NCBI GenBank assembly: GCA_030248295.1
Contig: JASANH010001343.1
Coordinates: 88,804 to 152,803, forward strand
Source: Mesodorylaimus sp. YZB2_4
Lineage: Eukaryota; Nematoda; Enoplea; Dorylaimida; Dorylaimidae
DNA length: 64,000 nucleotides
Direction of reading: 5' to 3'
Part shown: positions 53,229-64,000 of the stretch, in pieces
Numbering within the stretch: the first letter of the stretch is position 1
Layout: each line of letters begins with the position of its first letter
The notes under the pieces: generated by a model
What the model was told of the DNA's origin: nothing
The model's database searches: none
Seen by the model: only the letters and a program-made list of their open reading frames with translations
Program-made: the position numbers and the translations under genes

Positions 53229-53463
53229 AGCATACGTCGCTCCGCTACTAGTATGAACGCGGCTCCTACGTCACTAGTAGTATATGTAAGTGTCGTGCTG
53301 GCGCAGCTAGCTGCGGGCGAACCCTCCAGCTTATCATACCAGCTTATTATCACCCCTCAGCTACTGACCACTAGCCTTAAGCCAAGCCCCGCAGGGCCTT
53401 AATTAGCTTACCAACCTAATAATCGTCAGTCCCTTGAGGCCCTTATTATCACTGTGAGCCCCC
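53229..53463. other. Possible left border zone of the Polinton-like element
   Basis: No coding frame. The left terminal inverted repeat of the Polinton should be near here, but its partner lies beyond the window, so I cannot confirm it. Confidence 0.35.
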
Positions 53464-53602
53464 TTATCAGTCATTAGCTGAACCTTATCAGTATCTAGTC
53501 ATTAGCTGAACCTTATCAGTATCTAGTCATTAGCTGAACCTTATCAGTATCTAGTCATTAGCTGAACCTTATCAGTATCTAGTCATTAGCTGAACCTTAT
53601 CA
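53464..53602 (+). repeat. 28-bp tandem repeat
   Basis: Four identical units of tcattagctgaaccttatca plus gtatctag at 53471-53582, then a 20-base partial fifth unit. The copies are perfect, so the array is recent or actively homogenised. Confidence 0.95.
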
Positions 53603-53700
53603 TCGACCAGTCAGCAAGTCAAGCTCCAATCTTCTTATCATATCACAAGTGTTTAATCAACCATTGATGAGCAATGATTTTAGAAAAGTGAAAAGTTTTG

Positions 53701-53775
53701 CGCCCGCTAAGAATCGAACTCGCCTCGCCTGATTGGAAGTCGAAAGTTCTACCAATCACACCACTAGGGCGGTTT
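53701..53775 (-). pseudogene. tRNA-like sequence, Gly(TCC)-like anticodon
   Basis: The minus strand has a tRNA-like layout: TAGTGGTGTGATTGGTAGAA (box A region), a loop with TCC in CTTCCAA, and AGTTCGATTCT (box B). A partial acceptor stem CGCCC/GGGCG is followed by TTTT runs. The T stem and acceptor stem have two mismatches each, so it is probably a decayed tRNA or a tRNA-derived SINE head and not a functional gene. Confidence 0.4.
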
Positions 53776-53933
53776 GCAATGAGGGGCGAGTGTGCATAGT
53801 GAAGACAGTTGACGATTAGAGAGTTAAGCTGCGTAACGAATTTCGGAATTGTGTCATAGTCTGAAGATTTTCATGTCATCGAGTGCTGTAGAATTCAAAT
53901 ATTTAATGTCTTATTGTGACTCCAATGAATGTG

Positions 53934-53939
53934 TATAAA
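53934..53939 (+). promoter_or_regulatory. TATA-like box of the leftmost Polinton gene
   Basis: GTGTATAAA, with TATAAA 28 bases before the first likely ATG. The same nonamer precedes the core-like protein gene at 57784. Confidence 0.5.
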
Positions 53940-53966
53940 CTAACGTCATTTTCCCCATTTCAGATC

Positions 53967-54614
53967 ATGATGGCTGGTCGTAACCCGTTCCTGTTTGAAA
54001 TGACAGAATTATTGGCTAGGGTTCAAAGACCGGGAAGATTAAATCATTTTGATAAGATATTAATCACTAATATTATAGTCACAGCGTTCATGATTCTAGT
54101 TATATTTTCACATATATTCGAAAAATATTCAACTCAACCGGAAATTTTTAATGCATCTGATTGCCTATGGATTGAGAAAGTCGATGACGGAAATGCAACT
54201 GTGCAACGTGAAATTAAAAACTGCGCACACGTCGATGGCGAAACTTATTTTTGCTCAAGTACTGAACGAAATGTTTACGAATTGGTTCAAGATGGAAAAC
54301 CCTGTTACCAGTACACGTCTGACGAAATTTTAATTTTATATGAAGCGTACACACGTTGTGTTCTCCAATTCGACAAGCATCAAGTATTCTGGCCGTGTGA
54401 TAAAACACTCCAGCTTTCTCACGACAACCCGAACCAATTACGCTACTTTCTGTCAGCCAACAATATCAAGCATGCCATCCTATTTGAAATTGACTCGTAC
54501 GCTCTGAAGCCAGTAAAGATAGTGTTGATTACTGATATGAATTGTTTCATTGCATCTACTGAGACAGTTGCCAGCTTGTTTCGAGTAATGTTAAATGTGC
54601 TCAAGATCAACTAA
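53967..54614 (+). CDS. Unknown single-pass membrane protein (type II-like) of the Polinton element
   Basis: 215 residues from the ATG at 53967. A short basic N-terminal part is followed by one strong membrane segment (about residues 31-51, ITNIIVTAFMILVIF). A C-terminal domain of some 160 residues follows, with about nine cysteines and two potential N-glycosylation sites (NAS, NAT), as in a type II surface protein. An acceptor-like ttccccatttcag lies just before the ATG, so an upstream non-coding exon is possible. I recognise no family. It could be a virion surface protein or cargo. Confidence 0.6.
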   Translation: MMAGRNPFLFEMTELLARVQRPGRLNHFDKILITNIIVTAFMILVIFSHIFEKYSTQPEIFNASDCLWIEKVDDGNATVQREIKNCAHVDGETYFCSSTERNVYELVQDGKPCYQYTSDEILILYEAYTRCVLQFDKHQVFWPCDKTLQLSHDNPNQLRYFLSANNIKHAILFEIDSYALKPVKIVLITDMNCFIASTETVASLFRVMLNVLKIN

Positions 54615-54690
54615 AACGATTCGATTTGGTTTTATAAATATAAAATATTGTTAATATTACATGAAAAATATGCAAACATACAGCTCTTGT

Positions 54691-55119
54691 CTAACGCGAC
54701 CAATGTTTATCACAGGTGCTTGGATCTTCGCAGTTTGAGGCTGCATATTTGATGCAGCAGTTGCATACTGCATAGCGCCTTCCAGGTTTATGAGGCCGCC
54801 CACAACAGGAACAAGTTTCCACAATTGTGGGACATACCTGGGCGGTCAGGTCAACCACAGTCGTCCGTCCGCATTCGCATCGTTCTTGCGTGTCATGATA
54901 TTCCGGAAGCCCGTTGACCAATCGCACCACCCTGACCTTTTCTGGATTCATTACACGCCGGCAGTATCGAGAATGGCATGTTACCGAAACCACTTGCCCA
55001 TTTCGATCCTTTTGCTCCCTAATCGAGGGAGAGCCGCACTTGCATACACGCATAAACTCGACGTGAGACATTTTCAACAACGACAACCCGACATCAGCCA
55101 ACCACTGGAACAACTCCAT
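54691..55119 (-). CDS. Cysteine-rich, probably zinc-binding protein of unknown function
   Basis: 142 residues with 15 cysteines in CxC, Cx4C and CxCC clusters (C26/C28, C48/C53, C81/C83, C103/C105/C106, C119/C121/C122, C130, C136). This is the spacing expected of multiple zinc sites. There is no membrane segment or signal peptide. It lies on the opposite strand between two element genes. The start may instead be Met17 (MSHVEFM). I recognise no family. Confidence 0.55.
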   Translation of the reverse strand: MELFQWLADVGLSLLKMSHVEFMRVCKCGSPSIREQKDRNGQVVSVTCHSRYCRRVMNPEKVRVVRLVNGLPEYHDTQERCECGRTTVVDLTAQVCPTIVETCSCCGRPHKPGRRYAVCNCCIKYAASNCEDPSTCDKHWSR

Positions 55120-55315
55120 GAACCTCCTTCCAGGAACAAATCTGGCGCACGTTTAGGGACATGACCAAACACGTTTTCGTCGCCATCGCGAAAAAATGAG
55201 TCATAGTGACTATACAGTAGACAAGTCCAAACATGAATCATGATAGCGTGTCTAGACAGTCACGGTGTCTTATGACTGGAATTCAATCAGCTGTCAAAGA
55301 CGAGACTTCCTAAAG

Positions 55316-55322
55316 TATTTAA
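55316..55322 (+). promoter_or_regulatory. TATA-like box of the zinc-finger gene
   Basis: TATTTAA lies 35 bases before the ATG at 55358. TCAGTC, an initiator-like motif, lies between at about 55341. Confidence 0.4.
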
Positions 55323-55357
55323 GTGACTGTCTGATCTTAGTCAGTCAATGTTAGAAA

Positions 55358-56105
55358 ATGTCGTCTCGTCGTCTTACTGCCGCCGATCCGAATGCTTGGT
55401 ACTGTTCTATTTGTTCGGAATTTTTAAGTTATTCGAATCGTTCTCGGTATGTTAATGTAAGACGCATAGTAATTACTTTACACTGTCCGCTCTTTTTTTA
55501 GACATATCAAAACACATCGAACATGTTCCGGATGTGGTGAAGTTGTCGGCCCGCGCCACGTTTGTCAGTCGTTAAAGAATCAGGCCCAGTTTCACCCGCT
55601 GTACATTGATAAAGAACTCAAGATGTACGTTCTGGGTATCTTACCAGAAGAATGGCCCGCCAAGCAGCAAGAGGCCACTCATCCAACGATCACTCCAGAG
55701 ATGCAGGAGCCTCCCACAATGGTCGTGGCTGGAGGAGAAAATGGAATCGATGTGGCTGGTACAAAAATTTTCCCAGTGTCTCACATTGACAATGCAAATC
55801 AAGTTCCATATTCTCCATCACTCCAGCCTCCGTCGCAGGAGGAAATCAAGAAAACGGGGGACGTGTCTGTGATGCAGAACAGTGAGGCGCGCAGAAATTC
55901 AATTCTAGCGAAGGTGTATTGTGACATGTTGTATTCTCACTTATGCCTATGTTGCTGCGGGAAAGGAGGGTGCGTGAACTGTACTAAAAGTGTTTTAGAT
56001 TTTTTCGAAGGCTCTGTCACTAAGCTCGGTCACGAGAAGGAGGTTACGCGTGATGATATGGTTCTGTATATGCTTATGAATGCTTCTTCGATTCCTGCTT
56101 TTTAG
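55358..56105 (+). CDS. Spliced C2H2 zinc-finger protein upstream of the integrase
   Basis: Exons 55358-55446 and 55502-56105 join in phase across a 55-base GT-AG intron (gtatgt...tttttttag) to give 230 residues. The splice restores a C2H2 finger split by the intron: CSIC from exon 1 and HIKTH from exon 2 (spacing C-x2-C-x11-H-x3-H), followed by CSGCGE. The rest has a Pro-rich middle and a cysteine cluster LCLCCCGKGGCVNC near residue 190. It ends six bases before the integrase ATG. It may be a DNA-binding regulator of the element. Only the finger is recognised. Confidence 0.75.
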
Positions 56106-56111
56106 AATAAA

Positions 56112-57390
56112 ATGGAAGAGTTGGAGAATGTGTATAAAACTCCAAATTCGAAAGGTGCATTTGGTGGTCAAGACAAACTTGCACGTGCTGTACCCGGTTT
56201 GAGTCGTAAACGTGCAGCTGAGTTCCTGACGACTCAAGAGTCGTATCAGCTGACTAAACCACCTCGTTTGAAATTTCCAACTAATCGAATTTATGTTCAC
56301 GGTCCGAACGAGATCCACGAGGCTGATCTATCCGACTTGACAATTTACAAAGATGACAATGATGGATATAAATTTTTACTTTTCATTATTGATTTATTTT
56401 CAAAAGTACTAACAGTAATCCCGCTCAAGAATAAAAGTGAGGTTTAGACTCTAAATTCTTTCTGATGAGTTCAAATTATTGTTTCGTACTTTAGGCAGTG
56501 ACGCGATGCATGAGGCATTTGTAAAAGCTTACAGTGATCCAAAGAGTAGACCCTTGTATCTCCATACAGATAAGGGGGTAAGTTTAAAATACCTTTTTCT
56601 TTTCATTCTTGTGCACACATGAACATTTTAGACTGAATTTTACAATTCAAAAATGAAAAAGCTCTATAAAACGTTGGGTATTCTCCGTCACTATTCTACT
56701 TATTCAGAAAAGAAGGCATCTACAGTAGAGAGGGTAAGAGTGTGATGCATGTTTCGACTTGTTCAGAAAACGCGTTGTCATAGGTTCAAAGAACATTCAA
56801 GTCAATGCTGATGCGCTATCTACTGGATCGAAAGACCAAACGATACATTGATGTGTTGCAACCTTTGGTTGAGTCATACAACCAGTCCTATCATCGAACG
56901 ATCGGCATGGCTCCAGCCGACGTCACTGACGCCGACGCAGACGTCATTCGAGGAAGGATGTACCCAATGACTGACCCTGTCCCACGCGAACCGAAATTTG
57001 CAGTCGATGACTATGTCAGAATCTCGATGCAGAGACCCGTCGTTGGTCATAAGGGTTACGATGTGCAGTGGAGTTTTCAAGTTTATCAGATCCATAGTGT
57101 TCTGGCCCATCGAGACCAAGTACAGTACCGCGTCAAGGATCACAGAGGACGCCTGCTTAAAGGTGATTTGAGTGGCTAATAATCTCATCTTTAAAATACA
57201 AGTGGCACTCTTTTCAGGTGCTTTTTACGAACCAGAATTGCAAAAGGTGCCAGCGCCGACAGAGTATAGAATTGAAAAAGTTATTCGCCAACGTAAAGGC
57301 AAGGACGGGAAAAAGCAATATTTGGTTCGATTCCAAGGATACGGTCCCGAAGACGACGCCTGGATATCTGAAGAAGAATTCACGACATGA
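56112..57390 (+). CDS. Polinton/Maverick retrovirus-like integrase with C-terminal chromodomain, five exons
   Basis: Exons 56112-56436, 56495-56577, 56632-56733, 56784-57162 and 57218-57390 join in phase (introns 58, 54, 50 and 55 bases) to give 353 residues. After an N-terminal helical region the RNase H-fold core shows Asp in HEADLSDL, Asp in LHTDKGTEFYN and Glu in KASTVERVQRTFK, the DDE triad with the spacing seen in Maverick integrases. The chromodomain YRIEKVIRQRKGK...WISEEEF closes the protein and probably guides integration to chromatin. The enzyme joins element ends to host DNA. No lesion is seen. Its last bases overlap the next start (ATGA). Confidence 0.92.
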
Positions 57391-57788
57391 ATCCGTTTAA
57401 CTTGCATCTTTGTAGTAGAGGGAGTAAGGAATATTTTCCAGATAATGTACCGAGTCATTTTACGAATATTTTATCAACTCCACTGTCTGACATGTTGAAT
57501 TTCAAGGTGGCCATTTCGGCCTGTCACCTGTTTTCCCCGATCCCGAGTGACATACCCCCGTGTCACATAATTTGCGATATTGTAACCCCATCCCCCTATG
57601 ATAATCGCAAGCTACCCATTATTGGTTTCTTGCCCAATTCAAATTTATGGACCCCCAGACCCGTTTTCTTCACTGTATGCAAGGATAATATCGAGTGTAT
57701 TACGGTATCGATTACTGATGATGACGGTAAAGTGGTGCAGCAGTTGACGAGTGATTTCATCCTTGCACTGACTTTTAAACGTGTATAA
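57387..57788 (+). CDS. Small capsid-associated protein (putative minor capsid/penton-type)
   Basis: 133 residues, starting at an ATG that overlaps the integrase stop (ATGA). It contains YFPDNVPSHFTNIL near the start and ends with ...DDDGKVVQQL...LTFKRV, a beta-rich pattern I associate with a short protein found next to Maverick capsid genes. It immediately precedes the core-like and major capsid genes. A penton or capsid-cement role is inferred from context; no catalytic motif is visible. Confidence 0.6.
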   Translation: MNPFNLHLCSRGSKEYFPDNVPSHFTNILSTPLSDMLNFKVAISACHLFSPIPSDIPPCHIICDIVTPSPYDNRKLPIIGFLPNSNLWTPRPVFFTVCKDNIECITVSITDDDGKVVQQLTSDFILALTFKRV

Positions 57789-57790
57789 AA
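57784..57790 (+). promoter_or_regulatory. TATA box overlapping a stop codon
   Basis: TATAAAA within GTGTATAAAA. The stop TAA of the upstream gene (57786-57788) is part of the box. The next start codon is 52 bases downstream. Confidence 0.55.
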
Positions 57791-57841
57791 TCTCGCGCTT
57801 TTCATTCTGCATTCTCATTGTTTGGTTGTCATGTTGGCTTC

Positions 57842-58138
57842 ATGGAAAGTAAACTCGGTTCCCTGCATATAAGTTCACAGTCTCAGAACCCGGTGGAAAG
57901 ACTTCATTTAATTCCTATGAAATATTTGGGTGGAAAAGTGTCAGTGCGGAAAAAGCGAGCCACCTCGACTACGACATCCACTGCTCAAAAGAAGAAAAAG
58001 AAGAATACCAAGGCACCGGCCAAGAAAGGAAAAGTAGTCTCGAAGCCTGGACGTGTGGCTGGAAAGAAGCCAGCGCCAAGAAAGAATGGCAGAAAAAGAG
58101 GATCAACTCGAACTGCCAGTAAGCGTGGCAGATATTAA
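57842..58138 (+). CDS. Lys/Arg-rich core-like (DNA-condensing) protein
   Basis: 98 residues from the ATG at 57842. The C-terminal 60 residues are almost wholly Lys, Arg, Ala, Pro, Thr and Ser (KKKKKNTKAPAKKGK, ending KRGRY). This composition is like adenovirus core proteins and histone tails. It sits directly before the major capsid gene and overlaps it by 53 bases in another frame. Inferred role: neutralise packaged DNA in the virion. Confidence 0.65.
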   Translation: MESKLGSLHISSQSQNPVERLHLIPMKYLGGKVSVRKKRATSTTTSTAQKKKKKNTKAPAKKGKVVSKPGRVAGKKPAPRKNGRKRGSTRTASKRGRY

Positions 58139-59423
58139 TCCATTCGAGGGCAAGTATGTGGAAAAAGCACTGGCCGAAACGCGTTTGGACATTATACCAT
58201 GCTCAGTTCCTCTTCCAAGTTCTGATGTGAACTCGAGTATAGATTTCCATATCCCCATTGTCGAAGGTTACTTGACCGATTTAAGTCCAACTCTACTCGA
58301 AGTGGAATTGAAAATTAGTTACATGGAAGAAAATGTGGAAGATCGTATGATAAAAATGAATGACGAGGTGGGATTGGTCAATAATGTTTTGGCCAGTTTA
58401 TTTTCGAGTGCACAAGTTCTGATCAATAATACACTGGTGGTTGCTCCGAACGGCGCTCTCTCATTCATCAGCTACAATTCGATCATATCCAATTATTCGT
58501 ACGAAACTCGACAGTCATTGCTGAAAAGTGCCGGATGGATGGACGATACAGCGGCTGATATTGCCAAGGGCACAAACAATCCAAATGCCATTAAACGTAT
58601 GGAACAATTCTTGCTCGGTATAACTGGTCGTCTGATGGGCATTTTGCCAGTGGATTTTTTCAAAATTAGAAAGTATATTATGCCCAACGCCGATATAATT
58701 TTAAAATTGCATAGGAATAGGCCAGAGTTTATAATTTTGTTTTCACAAGAGAAACCGCCAGCAAAGCAAAGGCAGTTTAGTATTAGCATTGAGAAGGCCT
58801 ACTTGCACGTCAAGAGAATCAGACCTCACGATGACACGATGGCAGTGCTGCATCGCACACACTTGCGTACGCCGGCACAGTACGACTATTTCGACACCCA
58901 AGTCAAGTCAATTCTATTGGCGCCCAAGGTGTACAGCATCGATGCGGAGATCTATCAGGGTTTGGCACCGAGTCAAATGTTTATTGTGATGACAAAACAG
59001 CCAATGTCTGGAGCAGTCAAGGAGAACCCATTCTATTATATGCATAACAACCTCAAGTCTATTTCACTGGAGAAAAATGGTGTAGTTGTGGGAGAGAATT
59101 ACCAGGCTGATTTTTCAAAGGGCGATGTTTCGCGTTTGTACATGTCCTACCTGAGATCGACTGGTTGTATTTTGGAACGTGCTGGTGTAAGTTTTCTCGA
59201 TCAGACGGCTTACTGTAACGGATTCACAATTATTGGCTACAATTTGGAAAAGTGGGATGAATGCACCAGCTCGTTGCATTCGCCTCGCGAGCTGGCCACG
59301 TTTCGTCTTCGTATGGATTACAATACAGCGGTCGAACGTGATTACACTGTTGTGGTTCTGGTGCTTTTGAAATTTAAACGCACTCTGCTGTTGTATTCTG
59401 ACGGTAACGTGTCAGTTCAGTGA
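58086..59423 (+). CDS. Polinton major capsid protein (double jelly-roll, F54H12.2-like)
   Basis: 445 residues from the ATG at 58086; an earlier non-preferred Met in the same frame lies at 58053. The order of conserved patches matches the Maverick capsid family often annotated as 'F54H12.2-like'. These include NDEVGLVNNVLASLFSSAQV (residues about 95-114), LMGILPVDFF, FSISIEKAYLHVKRI, and MHNNLKSISLEKNG followed by DFSKGDVSRLY, then the C-terminal GFTIIGYNL region. Such proteins form trimeric capsomers of icosahedral virions. The open frame is complete. It overlaps the core-like gene and is followed 69 bases later by the packaging ATPase. Confidence 0.88.
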   Translation: MAEKEDQLELPVSVADINPFEGKYVEKALAETRLDIIPCSVPLPSSDVNSSIDFHIPIVEGYLTDLSPTLLEVELKISYMEENVEDRMIKMNDEVGLVNNVLASLFSSAQVLINNTLVVAPNGALSFISYNSIISNYSYETRQSLLKSAGWMDDTAADIAKGTNNPNAIKRMEQFLLGITGRLMGILPVDFFKIRKYIMPNADIILKLHRNRPEFIILFSQEKPPAKQRQFSISIEKAYLHVKRIRPHDDTMAVLHRTHLRTPAQYDYFDTQVKSILLAPKVYSIDAEIYQGLAPSQMFIVMTKQPMSGAVKENPFYYMHNNLKSISLEKNGVVVGENYQADFSKGDVSRLYMSYLRSTGCILERAGVSFLDQTAYCNGFTIIGYNLEKWDECTSSLHSPRELATFRLRMDYNTAVERDYTVVVLVLLKFKRTLLLYSDGNVSVQ

Positions 59424-59452
59424 TCTTATTCAATTGATGCTGCTTGACAGAT

Positions 59453-59458
59453 ATAAGT
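59453..59458 (+). promoter_or_regulatory. TATA-like box of the packaging ATPase
   Basis: gatataagtac, about 40 bases before the ATPase start. Confidence 0.4.
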
Positions 59459-59497
59459 ACTGTGTAAATGATAAAATTTTAAAATCCACTCGTGGTT

Positions 59498-60127
59498 ATG
59501 GCGTTTAAACTGCAGCACCCGTCTACGTTTATTGTCGCTGGTGGTACAGGCACTGGAAAAACTAGATTCGTAAAGAAGCTTCTTGAAGAGAGTGATGAAT
59601 TATTTTCCAAGCCGTTTACAAAGATTGAATGGTACTATGGGGTGTACCAAAGTATTTTTTCTGAGATGCCGAAAGTGGAATTTAAAGAAGGTTTTCCTGA
59701 CGTGGCCAATTTAATTCCTGGTTCTTGCATAGTGCTGGATGATTTACAAGCATCGCTGACCAAGGACACCTACAAACAGCTGGTGCGTATGTTTACTGTG
59801 GATTCGCATCATACTCCATTCACGCTCATTTACATTATTCAAACTTTGTTCGATAATCGAGATGAAATGCGGACTATTGCTAGAAACTGCCAATACTTGA
59901 CACTAATGCGTGGCCCGAGAATGGAGGGAACCGTGGAAACATTTGCCCAACAAGCATTCCGTCGGAAAAATGGCTTCCTACTTGATGCCTACGAGAAAGC
60001 AACAACCGGCAAACGATTTTCATATTTATTCATTAATATGCACCCTTCAGAAACTGATCCAAAGCTCAAAGTGATGACAAACATTCTTCCATCTGAATAT
60101 CCCACGCATGTTTTCTTGCCAGTGTGA
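59498..60127 (+). CDS. FtsK/HerA-type genome-packaging ATPase (A32-like)
   Basis: 209 residues from the ATG at 59498 (an ATG two codons earlier is possible). Walker A is GGTGTGKT with the P-loop Lys near residue 21. Walker B is SCIVLDDLQ near residue 80. A polar conserved stretch, TLIYIIQTLFDNRDEMRTIA, fits the sensor region. In Polintons and related double-jelly-roll viruses this motor pumps DNA into the capsid. It lies directly after the capsid gene, as in the family. No lesion. An AATAAA (60166) lies just downstream. Confidence 0.9.
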   Translation: MAFKLQHPSTFIVAGGTGTGKTRFVKKLLEESDELFSKPFTKIEWYYGVYQSIFSEMPKVEFKEGFPDVANLIPGSCIVLDDLQASLTKDTYKQLVRMFTVDSHHTPFTLIYIIQTLFDNRDEMRTIARNCQYLTLMRGPRMEGTVETFAQQAFRRKNGFLLDAYEKATTGKRFSYLFINMHPSETDPKLKVMTNILPSEYPTHVFLPV

Positions 60128-60202
60128 AGAAGAGGGTGATTATCACATGAAGACTGTAAAGTGTAAATAAAAACATAGTGGCAGTGCATTCGCCTTTTAA
60201 AA

Positions 60203-60565
60203 ATGTCCGAGTCTGTCGGCAAAGTTAAACGTGAGTTGCAAATACTCTCCCTGTCACTCCCGTCTGCCGCCAAAAGGCAATTGACCGACGCCAGTCCCAC
60301 ACTCATCACAGCCATTGCCGAATTCGCTCTGAACCTGGTCAATAATTCCGATATTGATATTACGCCTCAACAAAATCGACATTTGGTCAAGTTCAAAAGA
60401 GATATTGCTTTCTTGGCCAACGAAAAGATTTGCTGGAAACGGAAAACTCATCTTATTCGAAAACGTGGTTTCAAATTTGTCCCAACTTTGATTCAAGCCA
60501 TTCTCCCGTATGTCGAAAGAGTACGTACTGATCTCAGTGTCGGAGTATCAACGCTTAAAAAATAA
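60203..60565 (+). CDS. Small basic conserved-type Polinton protein
   Basis: 120 residues, helical and basic (LTDASPTLITAIAEFALNLV, FKRDIAFLANEKI, KRKTHLIRKRG). I recognise the general shape as a short protein often found near capsid genes in Mavericks, but its role is not known to me. taaataaaa about 35 bases upstream could serve as a TATA box or as the polyadenylation signal of the ATPase. Its end overlaps the next gene by 56 bases in another frame. Confidence 0.6.
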   Translation: MSESVGKVKRELQILSLSLPSAAKRQLTDASPTLITAIAEFALNLVNNSDIDITPQQNRHLVKFKRDIAFLANEKICWKRKTHLIRKRGFKFVPTLIQAILPYVERVRTDLSVGVSTLKK

Positions 60566-60971
60566 TTTCCAAAAGTCCCACCCGGCACCCACCACGAATC
60601 AGCCAGAGCCACAAACTGACAATGGCCAAGTCCAGATTGCAAGCGAAGAGGTGGAGAGTGATCAAAATTATGATGTGTATTTAGATCTTCTACCCAAGGC
60701 TTACGTCAATCGTGCTAGGGTCATTTTGAAAACCCTGAAACCAACACTCACTGAGCATGGGCGAATTGTGTATTCAGATTCCAGTGTCGGTAGCCACATT
60801 GTCGATTTGCTAAAGTATGTTATTGCACCGTCTCATTTTCGTAAAAGGCGTCCTAAGGACACTTTAAATTTTATTGAAATTTTACGCAATGCCAATGTGC
60901 CGCAAAGTGTGTACTATGGCGGAATGCCAGCAAATGAGTCTACTGCATCTTGGTTAACCTTTGAGAAGTAA
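60510..60971 (+). CDS. Conserved-type Polinton protein with GSHIVDLLK motif
   Basis: 153 residues. The N-terminal half is Gln/Pro-rich and acidic (TTNQPEPQTDN). The C-terminal half has LPKAYVNRARVILKTLKP, then GRIVYSDSSVGSHIVDLLKY and a basic patch HFRKRRPKD. This is a pattern I associate with a recurrent Maverick protein of unknown function. It starts inside the previous gene; no promoter-like site was fixed. Confidence 0.6.
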   Translation: MSKEYVLISVSEYQRLKNNFQKSHPAPTTNQPEPQTDNGQVQIASEEVESDQNYDVYLDLLPKAYVNRARVILKTLKPTLTEHGRIVYSDSSVGSHIVDLLKYVIAPSHFRKRRPKDTLNFIEILRNANVPQSVYYGGMPANESTASWLTFEK

Positions 60972-61121
60972 AACACATACTTGGTTTGTAATGTGCACCT
61001 TGCTGCTCATCTTTCACGTCACATCAATCGCGTTGGAGCCAACAGCGCAATCATGATGTGCAGCTGCACATAATCTTGCGACCTTTGTTTGCTCAAATCA
61101 TCCCATTGCACAAGAAACGTC

Positions 61122-61445
61122 TTATAAACTGGCGATTTCTTTTATCATCCACTGTGCTACGATTCCAGTGATCAGCCAAGGCGTTGTGATCCAGGCGACA
61201 GTCGCTGTTCCGTTAATAGCGCACTGAATGGAGTCCAATGAATAATTTTGTCTGAAATTAAATGTCGCTTTATCTCTTGAAAACTGTTTCACTGTAAGAA
61301 GATACCGTTGCTGCCACATCGCCGCTATAGTGCTATTCAACGCTGCAATTTGCTCATTGAGACAAAACATTTGAGCCATCAGACAGCTCTGAGCACTGTA
61401 CAGCACTGTAAGCTTTCTTACTGCGCATATTTTGCCACCTTCCAT
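61122..61445 (-). CDS. Hypothetical small protein with C-terminal hydrophobic helix
   Basis: 107 residues. The middle part could form a short coiled coil (CLNEQIAALNSTIAAMWQQR). The end has a membrane-like stretch (ATVAWITTPWLITGIVAQWM). No family recognised. It is the longest frame in a gap of almost 800 bases within the element and could be chance. Confidence 0.35.
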   Translation of the reverse strand: MEGGKICAVRKLTVLYSAQSCLMAQMFCLNEQIAALNSTIAAMWQQRYLLTVKQFSRDKATFNFRQNYSLDSIQCAINGTATVAWITTPWLITGIVAQWMIKEIASL

Positions 61446-61772
61446 TCATATGGATTTCAGGCGGACACAGGCGGAACAGTATATGCAAAAGTACTCCACT
61501 TTACAGCACTGTCAATGCTGTAAAGTGCTACCCTGATTTTAAATCTAGCGCTAGACATGCATGCAGACTTATTGCATCAGGACATGTATCTGATTAGAAT
61601 GGAACAGTTTGCAGAGCCTGTGCTCTCAGAATGGTTAGACCTGCATGTTGTGATATATCTATCATTTACAGTGATGTAAGCTAGTCTACAAACTCGCTGT
61701 CAGCTCCCATAAAGTGACAAATTCATAATTTTTTCTATTTTGAATTTGATTTTTTTTCTCTTAAACTGCCAA
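61446..61772. other. Spacer with a 12-bp perfect hairpin
   Basis: cactttacagca and tgctgtaaagtg at about 61497-61527 pair perfectly around a seven-base loop. The related sequence cactgtacagcactgtaa lies about 100 bases upstream (61395-61412). No coding frame. Confidence 0.5.
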
Positions 61773-62579
61773 ATGATGATTATATATTATCTTATTTTTG
61801 CATCAATTCCATTGTTATCAAATGCGATTTGCTTATGTGAAATGAATCAATTGTCCTGTTCTGGCACAGTGGTATTGGGCGATCTATTTCACATCTCTTG
61901 CAAGTCGTTTGTGGAGAAAATCGTATTCGATTCGGACGCTGAGATTAAGAATTGTCCATTGAATTTAACGTCAATATTTCCAATGGTTAAAGTGGTTAGG
62001 GCCGATGATTTGACAATTTGCACTTGCTTCCTGAGCCCTATTTGCCAAAAGACAGATCAATCAAATATTCGCATTTCAACAACCACTCGAACCTGCTCAG
62101 TGCAAAATATCACTATTGCGGTCTTTGTGCTAGTTCTCATTGGCACTTGGATTGGTGCGGGAATCGGGTTGTGGAAATGTCGGCAACGTGTCCAACGTCC
62201 GTACGTTCGTGGTCTTCTGGAGACCTCGACCATGTCTAACTTGCACGAGCGGGACGATCGTAGAATAGAGCAATTGGAATTAGACCTTGCTCATCAACGT
62301 GATGAAATCGATCGTGTTCGAAAGCGAAATCAGCAACTGGAAGATCATAATAATCTGATCAATTTTCAAGGTGGAAATACTGAAATGTATGTCAAGGAAC
62401 TAGAAGAAGATCTGACACGCTTAAATAGAGAAAATGAGGAATGGAAAGAAAAATTTGCCATACGAGATGACGAGTACAATGCCTTACAATGGGAATTTAT
62501 CGCGAGCAAAGACGAGGTAGGCATTTTAAAGGAGGAAATTGAACGGTTGAAAACATTGCGTCATGTTAGCACCATTTGA
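61773..62579 (+). CDS. Type I membrane protein with Cys-rich ectodomain and cytoplasmic coiled coil
   Basis: 268 residues from the ATG at 61773. A signal peptide (residues 1-18, ending SNA) leads into an ectodomain of about 94 residues with nine cysteines and CLCEMNQLSC / TICTCFLSPIC ends. This resembles a minimal leucine-rich-repeat cap structure. Sites NLT and NIT could be glycosylated. The membrane helix is at about 113-134 (IAVFVLVLIGTWIGAGIG), followed by KCRQR as a stop-transfer. Residues 155-262 form a long charged coiled coil. It is uninterrupted. Possible roles are attachment protein, membrane anchor or cargo; I recognise no exact family. Confidence 0.7.
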   Translation: MMIIYYLIFASIPLLSNAICLCEMNQLSCSGTVVLGDLFHISCKSFVEKIVFDSDAEIKNCPLNLTSIFPMVKVVRADDLTICTCFLSPICQKTDQSNIRISTTTRTCSVQNITIAVFVLVLIGTWIGAGIGLWKCRQRVQRPYVRGLLETSTMSNLHERDDRRIEQLELDLAHQRDEIDRVRKRNQQLEDHNNLINFQGGNTEMYVKELEEDLTRLNRENEEWKEKFAIRDDEYNALQWEFIASKDEVGILKEEIERLKTLRHVSTI

Positions 62580-63173
62580 TGCTTGGCCGATCGTATATTC
62601 ATAGTTGACTTTATGTGGAAAATACAGATGATTGAAACTTGAATTTTTCTGAATGAATGCCATAGCCACAACACTCAATTTTCAGAATCAATAATGTTTT
62701 ATTTTGCGCCACCCGTCTTTTATAGAACGATAATACCAACAGAGCACTTTGAACTACTATGAGTCAACATTTAAATTTATCTCGCTATATCATGCTCATA
62801 GGTCTCTCACTACCAGTGGGTAAAAAAAAAATGGAGTATGTCAACCCCTAGGGATTATGCTACTGCCCAGGGACGGTGGCAACGAGGAGGAGGCAATTGG
62901 TGGGGCGAGGAGCGTGCTGTTGATGGAAAGTGTCCAGATACTGTGGTGAGAAAGCTCGAATTTTGATGCACGATGGCGGACATGTTGAATTTCGCAATGA
63001 TTCGTTAAAGATGATGGAAAACAAATGACTCAATTGGTTTATTTCAGGTTCCACACATACTGTACCTTACAAGAAATGGAAGACACGAGCAACGACAGGT
63101 TGCACGCACAACACAAGCATTGGCGGTCTATATTAAAAATATATATATATATATACATATAGACAATGACATG
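62580..63173. other. Spacer; possible small spliced gene; AT microsatellite
   Basis: A short plus-strand frame from 62836 (MSTPRDYATAQGRW...) ends at a donor-like gtgaga at about 62946. An acceptor-like tttatttcag lies at about 63049. Evidence is too weak for a gene call. An (AT)n run lies at 63139-63162. Confidence 0.35.
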
Positions 63174-64000
63174 TCACAGAAGCAATGGCGTAGAGGTACC
63201 ATCAGGCTTGAATACACGCTTTATATTAAGCACACCAAGACCAGATTTCTCCTGCAGGTAGGAGACTATACGCCCTCCAGGTCCCATTCTTATGCCAAAA
63301 TTATGCATGGCGGATATCTTTCCCTCATCCCCAAACAGTATCTTTTTATAATTCTCATACGTCAGAGCGTCGGTATTGTGGCTCATTGCACCTCCTTGTG
63401 CGACATTTTGACACCTTTGGTCCCCGTCAGAATATAGCATTTTGGACTAGGGCCGATAAAGTTGTCCCCCGACTTTTCAACCTGAAATTTAAACATGATT
63501 AGCTGAATTGACCGCATTGTAAAGCGAAATGCGAACCTTGAACAGCCCTGGCTCACGTAGAGTCATGGGGTCGTTATCGTCCACAAACCATTTGGACTTG
63601 ATTGCCTCAAACGCCTCGCGCTTGTCAGGAAGCACAGTCTCTTCGAGGGTGTCGGTACTGAGCGCCAAGTATATCTGAAATGAAAGAATTTTCAACATCG
63701 CAAATAAAACAATTGAAAACCAGAAACTTACAGAGTCGGTGTCACTTTCTAGCAGTATCCATTTACTCCGATCACAGTATTCGAGTAGAACGTCATAGAC
63801 GAAAGACAGCACCTAAAAGACTCAATCTCTAAATGAAGAAATTGGAAAAATTTTAAAAATCTCACTCTTAGCTTGGCAAATTGATACACAAAGAGCCCGA
63901 TAGTTAATGGTAGACCGAATCGTATCTTTTCTTTCCGACTGTGCACCTCGTAGCACTTTTCGGGTGACACCACAACAGTTCGAGCATGATAAGGGCTATT
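63174..64000 (-). CDS. Polinton DNA polymerase B (protein-primed type), C-terminal part, partial at window edge
   Basis: Minus-strand exons 64000-63866 (continuing beyond the window), 63812-63732, 63674-63537 and 63481-63174 join in phase across introns of 53, 57 and 55 bases. The first exon has the finger-region pattern IGLFVYQFAKLR. The next two give the catalytic palm motif LLESDTDSIYLALS (motif C, DTD). The last has PSPKCYILTGTKGVKMSHK and a C-terminal LTYENYKKILF region typical of Maverick polymerases. In the last exon the first frame hits TGA at 63383-63385 while the homologous C-terminus continues one frame over. A one-base deletion (or two-base insertion) near 63386 is likely, unless it is a sequence error. 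The donor at 63536 (gttcgc) is weak. Confidence 0.88.

What the first reader, a model, noticed from the sequence alone, without database searches (positions are those of the whole stretch)
53300..64000. Near-complete Polinton/Maverick (adintovirus-like) element with mostly intact, intron-containing genes
PolB, integrase with chromodomain, major capsid protein, packaging ATPase, a core-like basic protein and several unknown genes lie in one block. Once short introns are removed, all recognised frames but PolB are open. That implies a recent insertion or ongoing constraint, and the capsid genes imply the ability to form virions. The other transposons in the window are all broken.
Basis: partly seen in the sequence, partly recalled or inferred. 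Interest (0 to 1): 0.9.

Follow-up and report, generated by a model that had tools for sequence, protein, structure and literature searches.

The report
Nematode Maverick with swapping surface genes
The right end of this worm-genome piece holds part of a virus-like jumping element (a Maverick) of which the genome has many copies, and copies that are otherwise nearly identical carry very different, shuffled pairs of predicted surface-protein genes.

Summary
The element is real: a Maverick/Polinton with its left end at 53276, cut inside the polymerase gene by the contig end at 64000. The host is a nematode (133 Col_cuticle_N matches). One search lists 17 full-length ATPase copies at 89% identity or more, 14 without a stop. 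A complete sister copy has 650-bp inverted repeats (96.5% identical) and a 6-bp target duplication. Capsid and ATPase frames evolved under purifying selection (dN/dS about 0.17). The integrase has four phase-consistent GT-AG introns.

So the core claim holds. 'Near-complete, mostly intact' does not: most of PolB is off the contig, and one surface gene has lost its 5' part.

The new point lies between ATPase and PolB: two divergent genes whose products share a signal peptide and a Cys-rich domain without a clear relative. Copies 93.5-99.9% identical in the ATPase segment carry alleles here that mostly do not align, in all four combinations of two left and two right classes. That needs recombination, or misassembly. 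I read it as a swapped attachment-protein cassette; function and fold are inferred, and the capsid fold was not confirmed.

The parts
53276..54180 (.). left end and left terminal inverted repeat (inner border approximate); starts AGTAGTATA
   Evidence: only occurrence of AGTAGTATA in the window; copies C678 and C750 start matching at 53275/53276; right-end repeats of C418 and C225_1 match 53761-54198 inverted or as the far repeat
53465..53602 (.). 28-bp tandem repeat, 5 copies, inside the inverted repeat
53907..54614 (+). 235-aa frame of a predicted type II membrane protein (hydrophobic segment from residue 48); N-terminal part lies in the inverted repeat
   Evidence: pooled pN/pS 0.36 against six copies, no stops in them, frameshifts in C730 and C225_1
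54691..55152 (-). Cys-rich, zinc-ribbon-like frame, unknown
   Evidence: pooled pN/pS 0.25
55473..56105 (+). 210-aa Cys-rich frame, unknown; frameshifted against several copies
   Evidence: pooled pN/pS 0.24
56112..57390 (+). RVE integrase with C-terminal chromodomain; exons 56112-56436, 56495-56577, 56632-56733, 56784-57171, 57218-57390; introns of 58, 54, 50 and 46 bp
   Evidence: exons read apart, never joined
57387..57788 (+). about 134-aa frame, candidate minor capsid protein (by position and recalled resemblance only)
   Evidence: pooled pN/pS 0.28, no stop or frameshift in seven copies
57842..58138 (+). Lys/Arg-rich core-like protein
58086..59423 (+). putative major capsid protein, 445 aa, intact
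   Evidence: fold not confirmed
59498..60127 (+). packaging-type ATPase, 209 aa, intact
60203..60565 (+). conserved frame of about 120 aa, unknown; a counterpart follows the ATPase in the C713 family
60510..60971 (+). conserved frame of about 153 aa, unknown; counterpart in the C713 family
60972..61385 (-). remnant (3' part) of surface gene M, class a; its 5' exons (signal peptide, Cys-rich domain, collagen-like part) are missing in this copy
   Evidence: 97% identical to C418/C678/C724/C789, which have the rest
61392..61634 (.). intergenic stretch between the divergent surface genes (presumed two-way promoter)
   Evidence: 76% identical to the C418 stretch; found in all nine family A copies compared, only in part in C789
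61773..62579 (+). surface gene P, class 3: signal peptide, Cys-rich domain, transmembrane segment, coiled-coil tail; intact and unlike every other copy
63177..64000 (-). C-terminal part of the family B DNA polymerase, split by introns and cut by the contig end
   Evidence: tblastn with the C713 PolB frame, residues 703-913

Best explanation
The block is one copy of a multi-copy Maverick/Polinton family of a nematode, cut off by the contig end. Shown: family, ends and target duplication in a sister copy, intron-split integrase, constraint on capsid and ATPase frames, and a hypervariable two-gene locus between ATPase and PolB. Inferred: the element replicates by its own protein-primed polymerase, integrates with its chromodomain integrase and packages DNA with its ATPase. 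The two divergent genes (M on the minus strand, P on the plus strand, around a conserved intergenic stretch) encode surface proteins that meet through the same Cys-rich domain: P is anchored by a transmembrane segment, M is the exposed part (collagen-like stalk in class a, another distal domain in classes b and c). Recombination in the conserved stretches exchanges M and P independently between co-resident elements, so a conserved particle can change its attachment protein without changing its capsid. I give 0.9 to the Maverick identity, 0.75 to real recombination at the locus, and 0.4 to the attachment role.
For: Maverick identity. Separate insertions. Constraint: (MCP 0.166 and ATPase 0.168 as sum dN over sum dS, 45 pairs of ten copies each). 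Surface family: shared signal peptide and five invariant Cys in 9 of 9 aligned fragments; 22 of 37 places lie within 6 kb of an ATPase or MCP match, against about 1.2% of the genome. Hypervariability: the window's P has no match above 30% identity elsewhere in the genome, while its ATPase and MCP have 98-100% relatives. Exchange: M-a with P-1 (C418, C724), M-a with P-2 (C678), M-b with P-1 (C316), M-b with P-2 (C569; C1030 more weakly), M-c with P-2 (C750), M-a remnant with P-3 (window). C678 carries a partial duplication of the intergenic stretch exactly at the M/P border, the first copy 99.3% and the second 92.5% like C418. C418 also changes partner inside the MCP gene: 98-100% like C225_1 over bins 55400-57900, then 98-100% like C678 from 58400 on.
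Against: Near-identical repeats invite chimeric contigs, and no reads could be checked. The MCP has no profile, PDB or protein-database support beyond one metagenome fragment and its single-sequence model is useless. No copy outside this assembly was compared. The surface genes show no dN/dS above 1 (0.12-0.61 within classes). M has no strong transmembrane segment by a simple hydropathy scan. The C225 and C730 copies show no match to the surface family, so it is not needed by every copy. No maturation protease was found near this family.
Confidence: 0.7

Rival explanations
1. Assembly artefact: the mosaics are chimeric contigs built from near-identical repeats, and the surface alleles belong to different but internally uniform subfamilies.
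For: Most of these copies lie on short contigs (11-40 kb), several of which end inside the element.
Against: The alleles are real whatever their linkage, and four M/P pairings recur in different contigs. C316 and C569 were not among the near-identical copies (93.5-95.8% in the ATPase segment), where chimeras are less likely. C678 has a duplication scar at the border.
Confidence: 0.2
2. The variable genes are not for entry but for competition: membrane proteins that block superinfection by, or carry immunity against, related elements, hence diversified in pairs.
For: Paired divergent genes with matching domains, many alleles in one genome. No fusogen-like frame was recognised by eye, though none was searched for with a reference.
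Against: Collagen-like stalk in class a and N-glycosylation motifs seen by eye in class b/c distal parts suit an exposed protein.
Confidence: 0.25
3. An ordinary decaying Maverick family: variation between ATPase and PolB is only loose, low-constraint sequence in which old copies drifted and lost pieces.
For: Within-class dN/dS of 0.12-0.61 is weaker constraint than in the capsid block; several copies have stops or deletions.
Against: Drift cannot make genes on both sides unalignable between copies that are 99.9% identical around them (C418 against C678: ATPase segment 99.9%, M 100%, first part of P 0% aligned), and the Cys pattern is kept in all nine aligned fragments.
Confidence: 0.15
4. The block belongs to two insertions (PolB in one element, capsid block in another).
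For: PolB and capsid block have different divergence between groups.
Against: C418, C678, C750, C789 and C316 keep capsid/ATPase and the same PolB 3' part in the same order at unrelated sites.
Confidence: 0.03

Closest known systems
Polintons/Mavericks (Polintoviricetes), including the nematode element P1-CB named in PMC11071308 (passages seen)
   Same: PolB, RVE integrase with chromodomain, packaging ATPase, putative MCP, long inverted repeats, 6-bp target duplication (the last two in the sister copy C225_1)
   Different: no Ulp1/adenain-type protease found near this family, integrase and PolB split by introns, hypervariable paired surface genes
Nematode Mavericks with a putative fusogen and wosp/krma cargo (Widen and colleagues; known here only from one passage of the meeting report PMC10680173, and from recall; the paper itself is not held)
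   Same: nematode host, capsid and integrase module, extra genes that bear on transfer
   Different: the extra genes here are short Cys-rich membrane or collagen-like proteins; no fusogen, wosp or krma gene was identified, but none was searched for with a reference sequence
Adintoviruses
   Same: PolB plus integrase plus capsid layout (recalled)
   Different: not compared; no adintovirus sequence was available in the tools used
Exchangeable attachment genes of other viruses (phage tail fibres, adenovirus fibre; recalled)
   Same: conserved particle genes with a variable, recombining attachment locus
   Different: attachment role not shown here; two divergent genes with one shared domain

Membership tests
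[quoted passage not shown]
   C713 PolB frame passes PF03175 cut-off (26.1 against 25.8 bits) and matches C418 in eight pieces and the window in two; protein priming itself not tested
Polinton/Maverick | retrovirus-like (RVE) integrase | tested here: met
   Chromo E 2.5e-8; rve E 0.014 on the first exon only, below cut-off; exon series with D and E residues in the expected order by eye
Polinton/Maverick | packaging ATPase | tested here: met
   P-loop hits, best AAA_22 E 3.2e-5, FtsK and Pox_A32 only at about 0.1; position beside the MCP frame
Polinton/Maverick | double jelly-roll major capsid protein | tested here: inconclusive
   no Pfam, PHROG or PDB match; single-sequence model pLDDT 31
Polinton/Maverick | minor capsid protein | not tested
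   only a positional candidate, 57387-57788
Polinton/Maverick | Ulp1/adenain-type cysteine protease | tested here: inconclusive
   PF00770: 15 matches in the genome, none on the contigs of the window family, at least four about 5.6 kb from an ATPase of other families; exon-by-exon search could miss a split or diverged gene
Polinton/Maverick | long terminal inverted repeats and 6-bp target duplication | tested here: met
   in sister copy C225_1: 650 columns at 96.5%, AATCGG on both sides; in the window copy only the left end exists
Adintovirus | phylogenetic placement of PolB and capsid with adintoviruses | not tested
   no adintovirus sequence compared
Fusogen-bearing nematode Maverick | gene for a viral-type fusogen | not tested
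   no reference sequence in hand; no such gene recognised by eye in the frames listed

The most novel reading that the evidence does not exclude
Nematode Mavericks carry a dedicated two-gene surface cassette built on a new Cys-rich domain, and swap its halves by recombination inside the worm genome or in co-infected cells, making a reservoir of attachment types on one conserved particle.
Probability: 0.4. Interest if true: 0.8.

Novelty: new variant of a known kind. Interest (0 to 1): 0.58.

Why it matters
Mavericks are suspected vehicles of gene transfer between nematode species, and it is open how they reach new cells and hosts. A conserved particle module beside a variable, recombining surface locus would give that question a concrete object: a protein pair to look for in particles, and an allele set that population sequencing can follow. 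If it is misassembly, the allele diversity still stands but the exchange does not.

Tried and rejected
Extending to the right: impossible, the contig ends with the window. Host by spliced leader: SL1 22-mer, 0 matches, so the host call rests on the cuticle-collagen domain. MCP identity by database: no hit at E 0.001, one metagenome fragment with a ten-sequence profile, nothing in the PDB or in viral contigs; ATPase in viral contigs, none. MCP model useless; P model trustworthy only in the helical tail. Surface domain: Pfam only weak (best on the domain CFC E 0.0054 in 1 of 9; TM_ErbB1 E 0.00067 in 2 of 9 concerns the membrane segment), PDB only two at E about 0.5, no hit among 874 candidates. 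PolB pieces of C418 against Pfam: none, solved by the route through C713. Positive selection in the surface genes: not seen. Novelty in print: seven searches of the held library listed no paper on variable surface genes of nematode Mavericks, but the two nematode papers that matter most were not held, so no claim of priority is made. Rows left out: second rows of one place were dropped from the ATPase, MCP and surface lists (two rows of C330 among the surface ones), and two places were added.
Full report
What was checked. The window is the end of contig C222 of a 145-Mb assembly of 1067 contigs. The contig ends at window base 64000, so the finding cannot be extended to the right; sister copies were used instead. 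The host is a nematode: 133 matches to the nematode cuticle-collagen domain PF01484, 0 in the control genomes. An exact SL1 spliced leader was not found, so no clade is named.

The element. The left end is at 53276 (AGTAGTATA), where two sister copies also begin to match. Copy C225_1 (G000:C225, about 61308-76302) is complete: its ends form an inverted repeat of 650 columns at 96.5% identity, and AATCGG stands on both sides (read by eye). Long inverted repeats and 6-bp duplications are hallmarks of Polintons (recalled). The block 53276-60971 recurs in copies elsewhere, in pieces over 1.8 kb at 89-99% identity. The flanks compared share nothing next to the element (for C1030, C418 and C225_2 only partial flanks were compared), so these are separate insertions, not alternative haplotypes of one.

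Copy number. The ATPase frame has 150 scored matches in the genome (201 candidates, so a lower bound), 17 of them full length at 89% or more, 14 of these without a stop. The MCP frame has 102 matches. More distant families, at about 46% and 30-40% ATPase identity, live in the same genome.

Genes. The integrase carries a chromodomain. Its five exons are bordered by GT and AG, their phases fit (1, 0, 0, 1), and the length differences of six sister copies fall in the introns except for one compensating pair; C418 and C225_1 share most of these differences. The polymerase was recognised through copy C713 of another family, whose 913-aa frame passes the PF03175 cut-off and matches C418 in eight pieces and the window in two, the latter covering residues 703-913. 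That PolB frame is open over 913 codons in C713 but intron-split in C418, so introns differ between Maverick families of one genome. MCP and ATPase show dN/dS of 0.08-0.25 and 0-0.28 between the window and nine copies; the pooled ratio is about 0.17 for both (for MCP only 122 codons of C1030). Ten other frames or exons gave pooled pN/pS of 0.15-0.5 against up to seven copies, with stops or frameshifts in some copies. The MCP call rests on position, length, conservation and a recalled resemblance; no library confirmed it.

The variable locus. After the frame ending at 60971, copies diverge. Two genes point away from each other around a stretch of about 365 bp that is found in nine of nine family A copies (76-100% identical where it aligns, in C789 only in part). 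Both products begin with a signal peptide and a domain with five invariant Cys (nine fragments, 22-30% identity to the first). The window's P protein adds a membrane segment and a coiled-coil tail. M of class a adds collagen-like triplets over three exons; classes b and c have another distal part. The domain has no clear relative in Pfam, the PDB or the protein collection. Of 37 places of this family in the genome, 22 lie within 6 kb of an ATPase or MCP match, against about 1.2% of the genome, including copies of the 46% family such as C604, C24, C446, C349, C713 and C579. The other 15 places may be decayed elements or something else. No place lies on C225 or C730.

Exchange. In the ATPase segment eight copies are 93.5-99.9% identical (C789 was left out there because its piece starts later). 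In M they fall into class a (C418, C678, C724, C789, and the window's remnant; 97-100%), class b (C1030, C569, C316; 96-98%) and class c (C750), with 0-7% of the length alignable between a and the others and 19-23% between b and c. In P: class 1 (C418, C724, C316; 81-98%), class 2 (C678, C750, C569; 84-94%, and C1030 at 71-73% over its 242 bp), class 3 (window); C789 has lost P. Pairings a1, a2, b1 and b2 all occur. Four combinations of two classes at two neighbouring genes cannot arise by descent without exchange or repeated replacement. C678 shows a partial duplication of the intergenic stretch at the border. C418 also switches partner inside the MCP gene. The weak point is assembly: near-identical repeats can be joined wrongly, and reads were not available.

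Window copy. M is a remnant (about 1.07 kb missing relative to C418 and C724), P is intact and has no relative above 30% in the genome. The copy has therefore lost part of the cassette and, on this contig, most of PolB.

How it most likely works. As a Maverick it should copy its DNA with its own polymerase, insert with its integrase, and package with its ATPase (inferred from named families). The surface pair would give the particle its attachment part, with P as anchor and M as exposed arm joined by the common domain (inferred). Recombination in conserved flanks swaps the halves (supported). Surface genes are less constrained than capsid genes (0.12-0.61 within classes) but show no sign of dN/dS above 1.

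Compared with what is known. Polintons are described as encoding pPolB, RVE integrase, an Ulp1-type protease and a packaging ATPase, with capsid genes recognised later (PMC11071308, passages). Nematode Mavericks with a putative fusogen and exchanged cargo are reported (PMC10680173, one passage). Here no protease was found near the window's family, though PF00770 rings about 5.6 kb from ATPases of other families on C162, C682, C268 and C851. I file the element as a Maverick/Polinton of a nematode, a new variant because of the surface locus, with the capsid fold and protease open.

Noticed in passing
window:51614-53054: Harbinger-like transposase remnants on the minus strand (DDE_Tnp_4, E 3.7e-15) end about 220 bases left of the Maverick end.
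   Followed up: no
L054 (G000:C713:3800-12800): A Maverick of another family has an intron-free PolB frame of 913 codons and a single surface gene after the ATPase, while the window's family has intron-split PolB and two surface genes.
   Followed up: partly
G000:C162, C268, C682, C851: Adenain-type protease matches about 5.6 kb from ATPase genes of the most distant Maverick families; not seen on contigs of the window's family.
   Followed up: partly
G000:C225: Two Maverick copies in opposite orientation about 25 kb apart, with a PolB only about 65% like the window's where it aligns.
   Followed up: partly
G000:C320 48-50 kb and C450 43-45 kb: A surface gene pair of another class lies 14-32 kb from the nearest MCP match on its contig; decayed element or independent genes.
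   Followed up: no
window:53907-54614: The predicted type II membrane protein starts inside the terminal inverted repeat, so its first part exists twice in a complete element.
   Followed up: partly
whole genome: No exact SL1 spliced-leader 22-mer in this nematode assembly.
   Followed up: no
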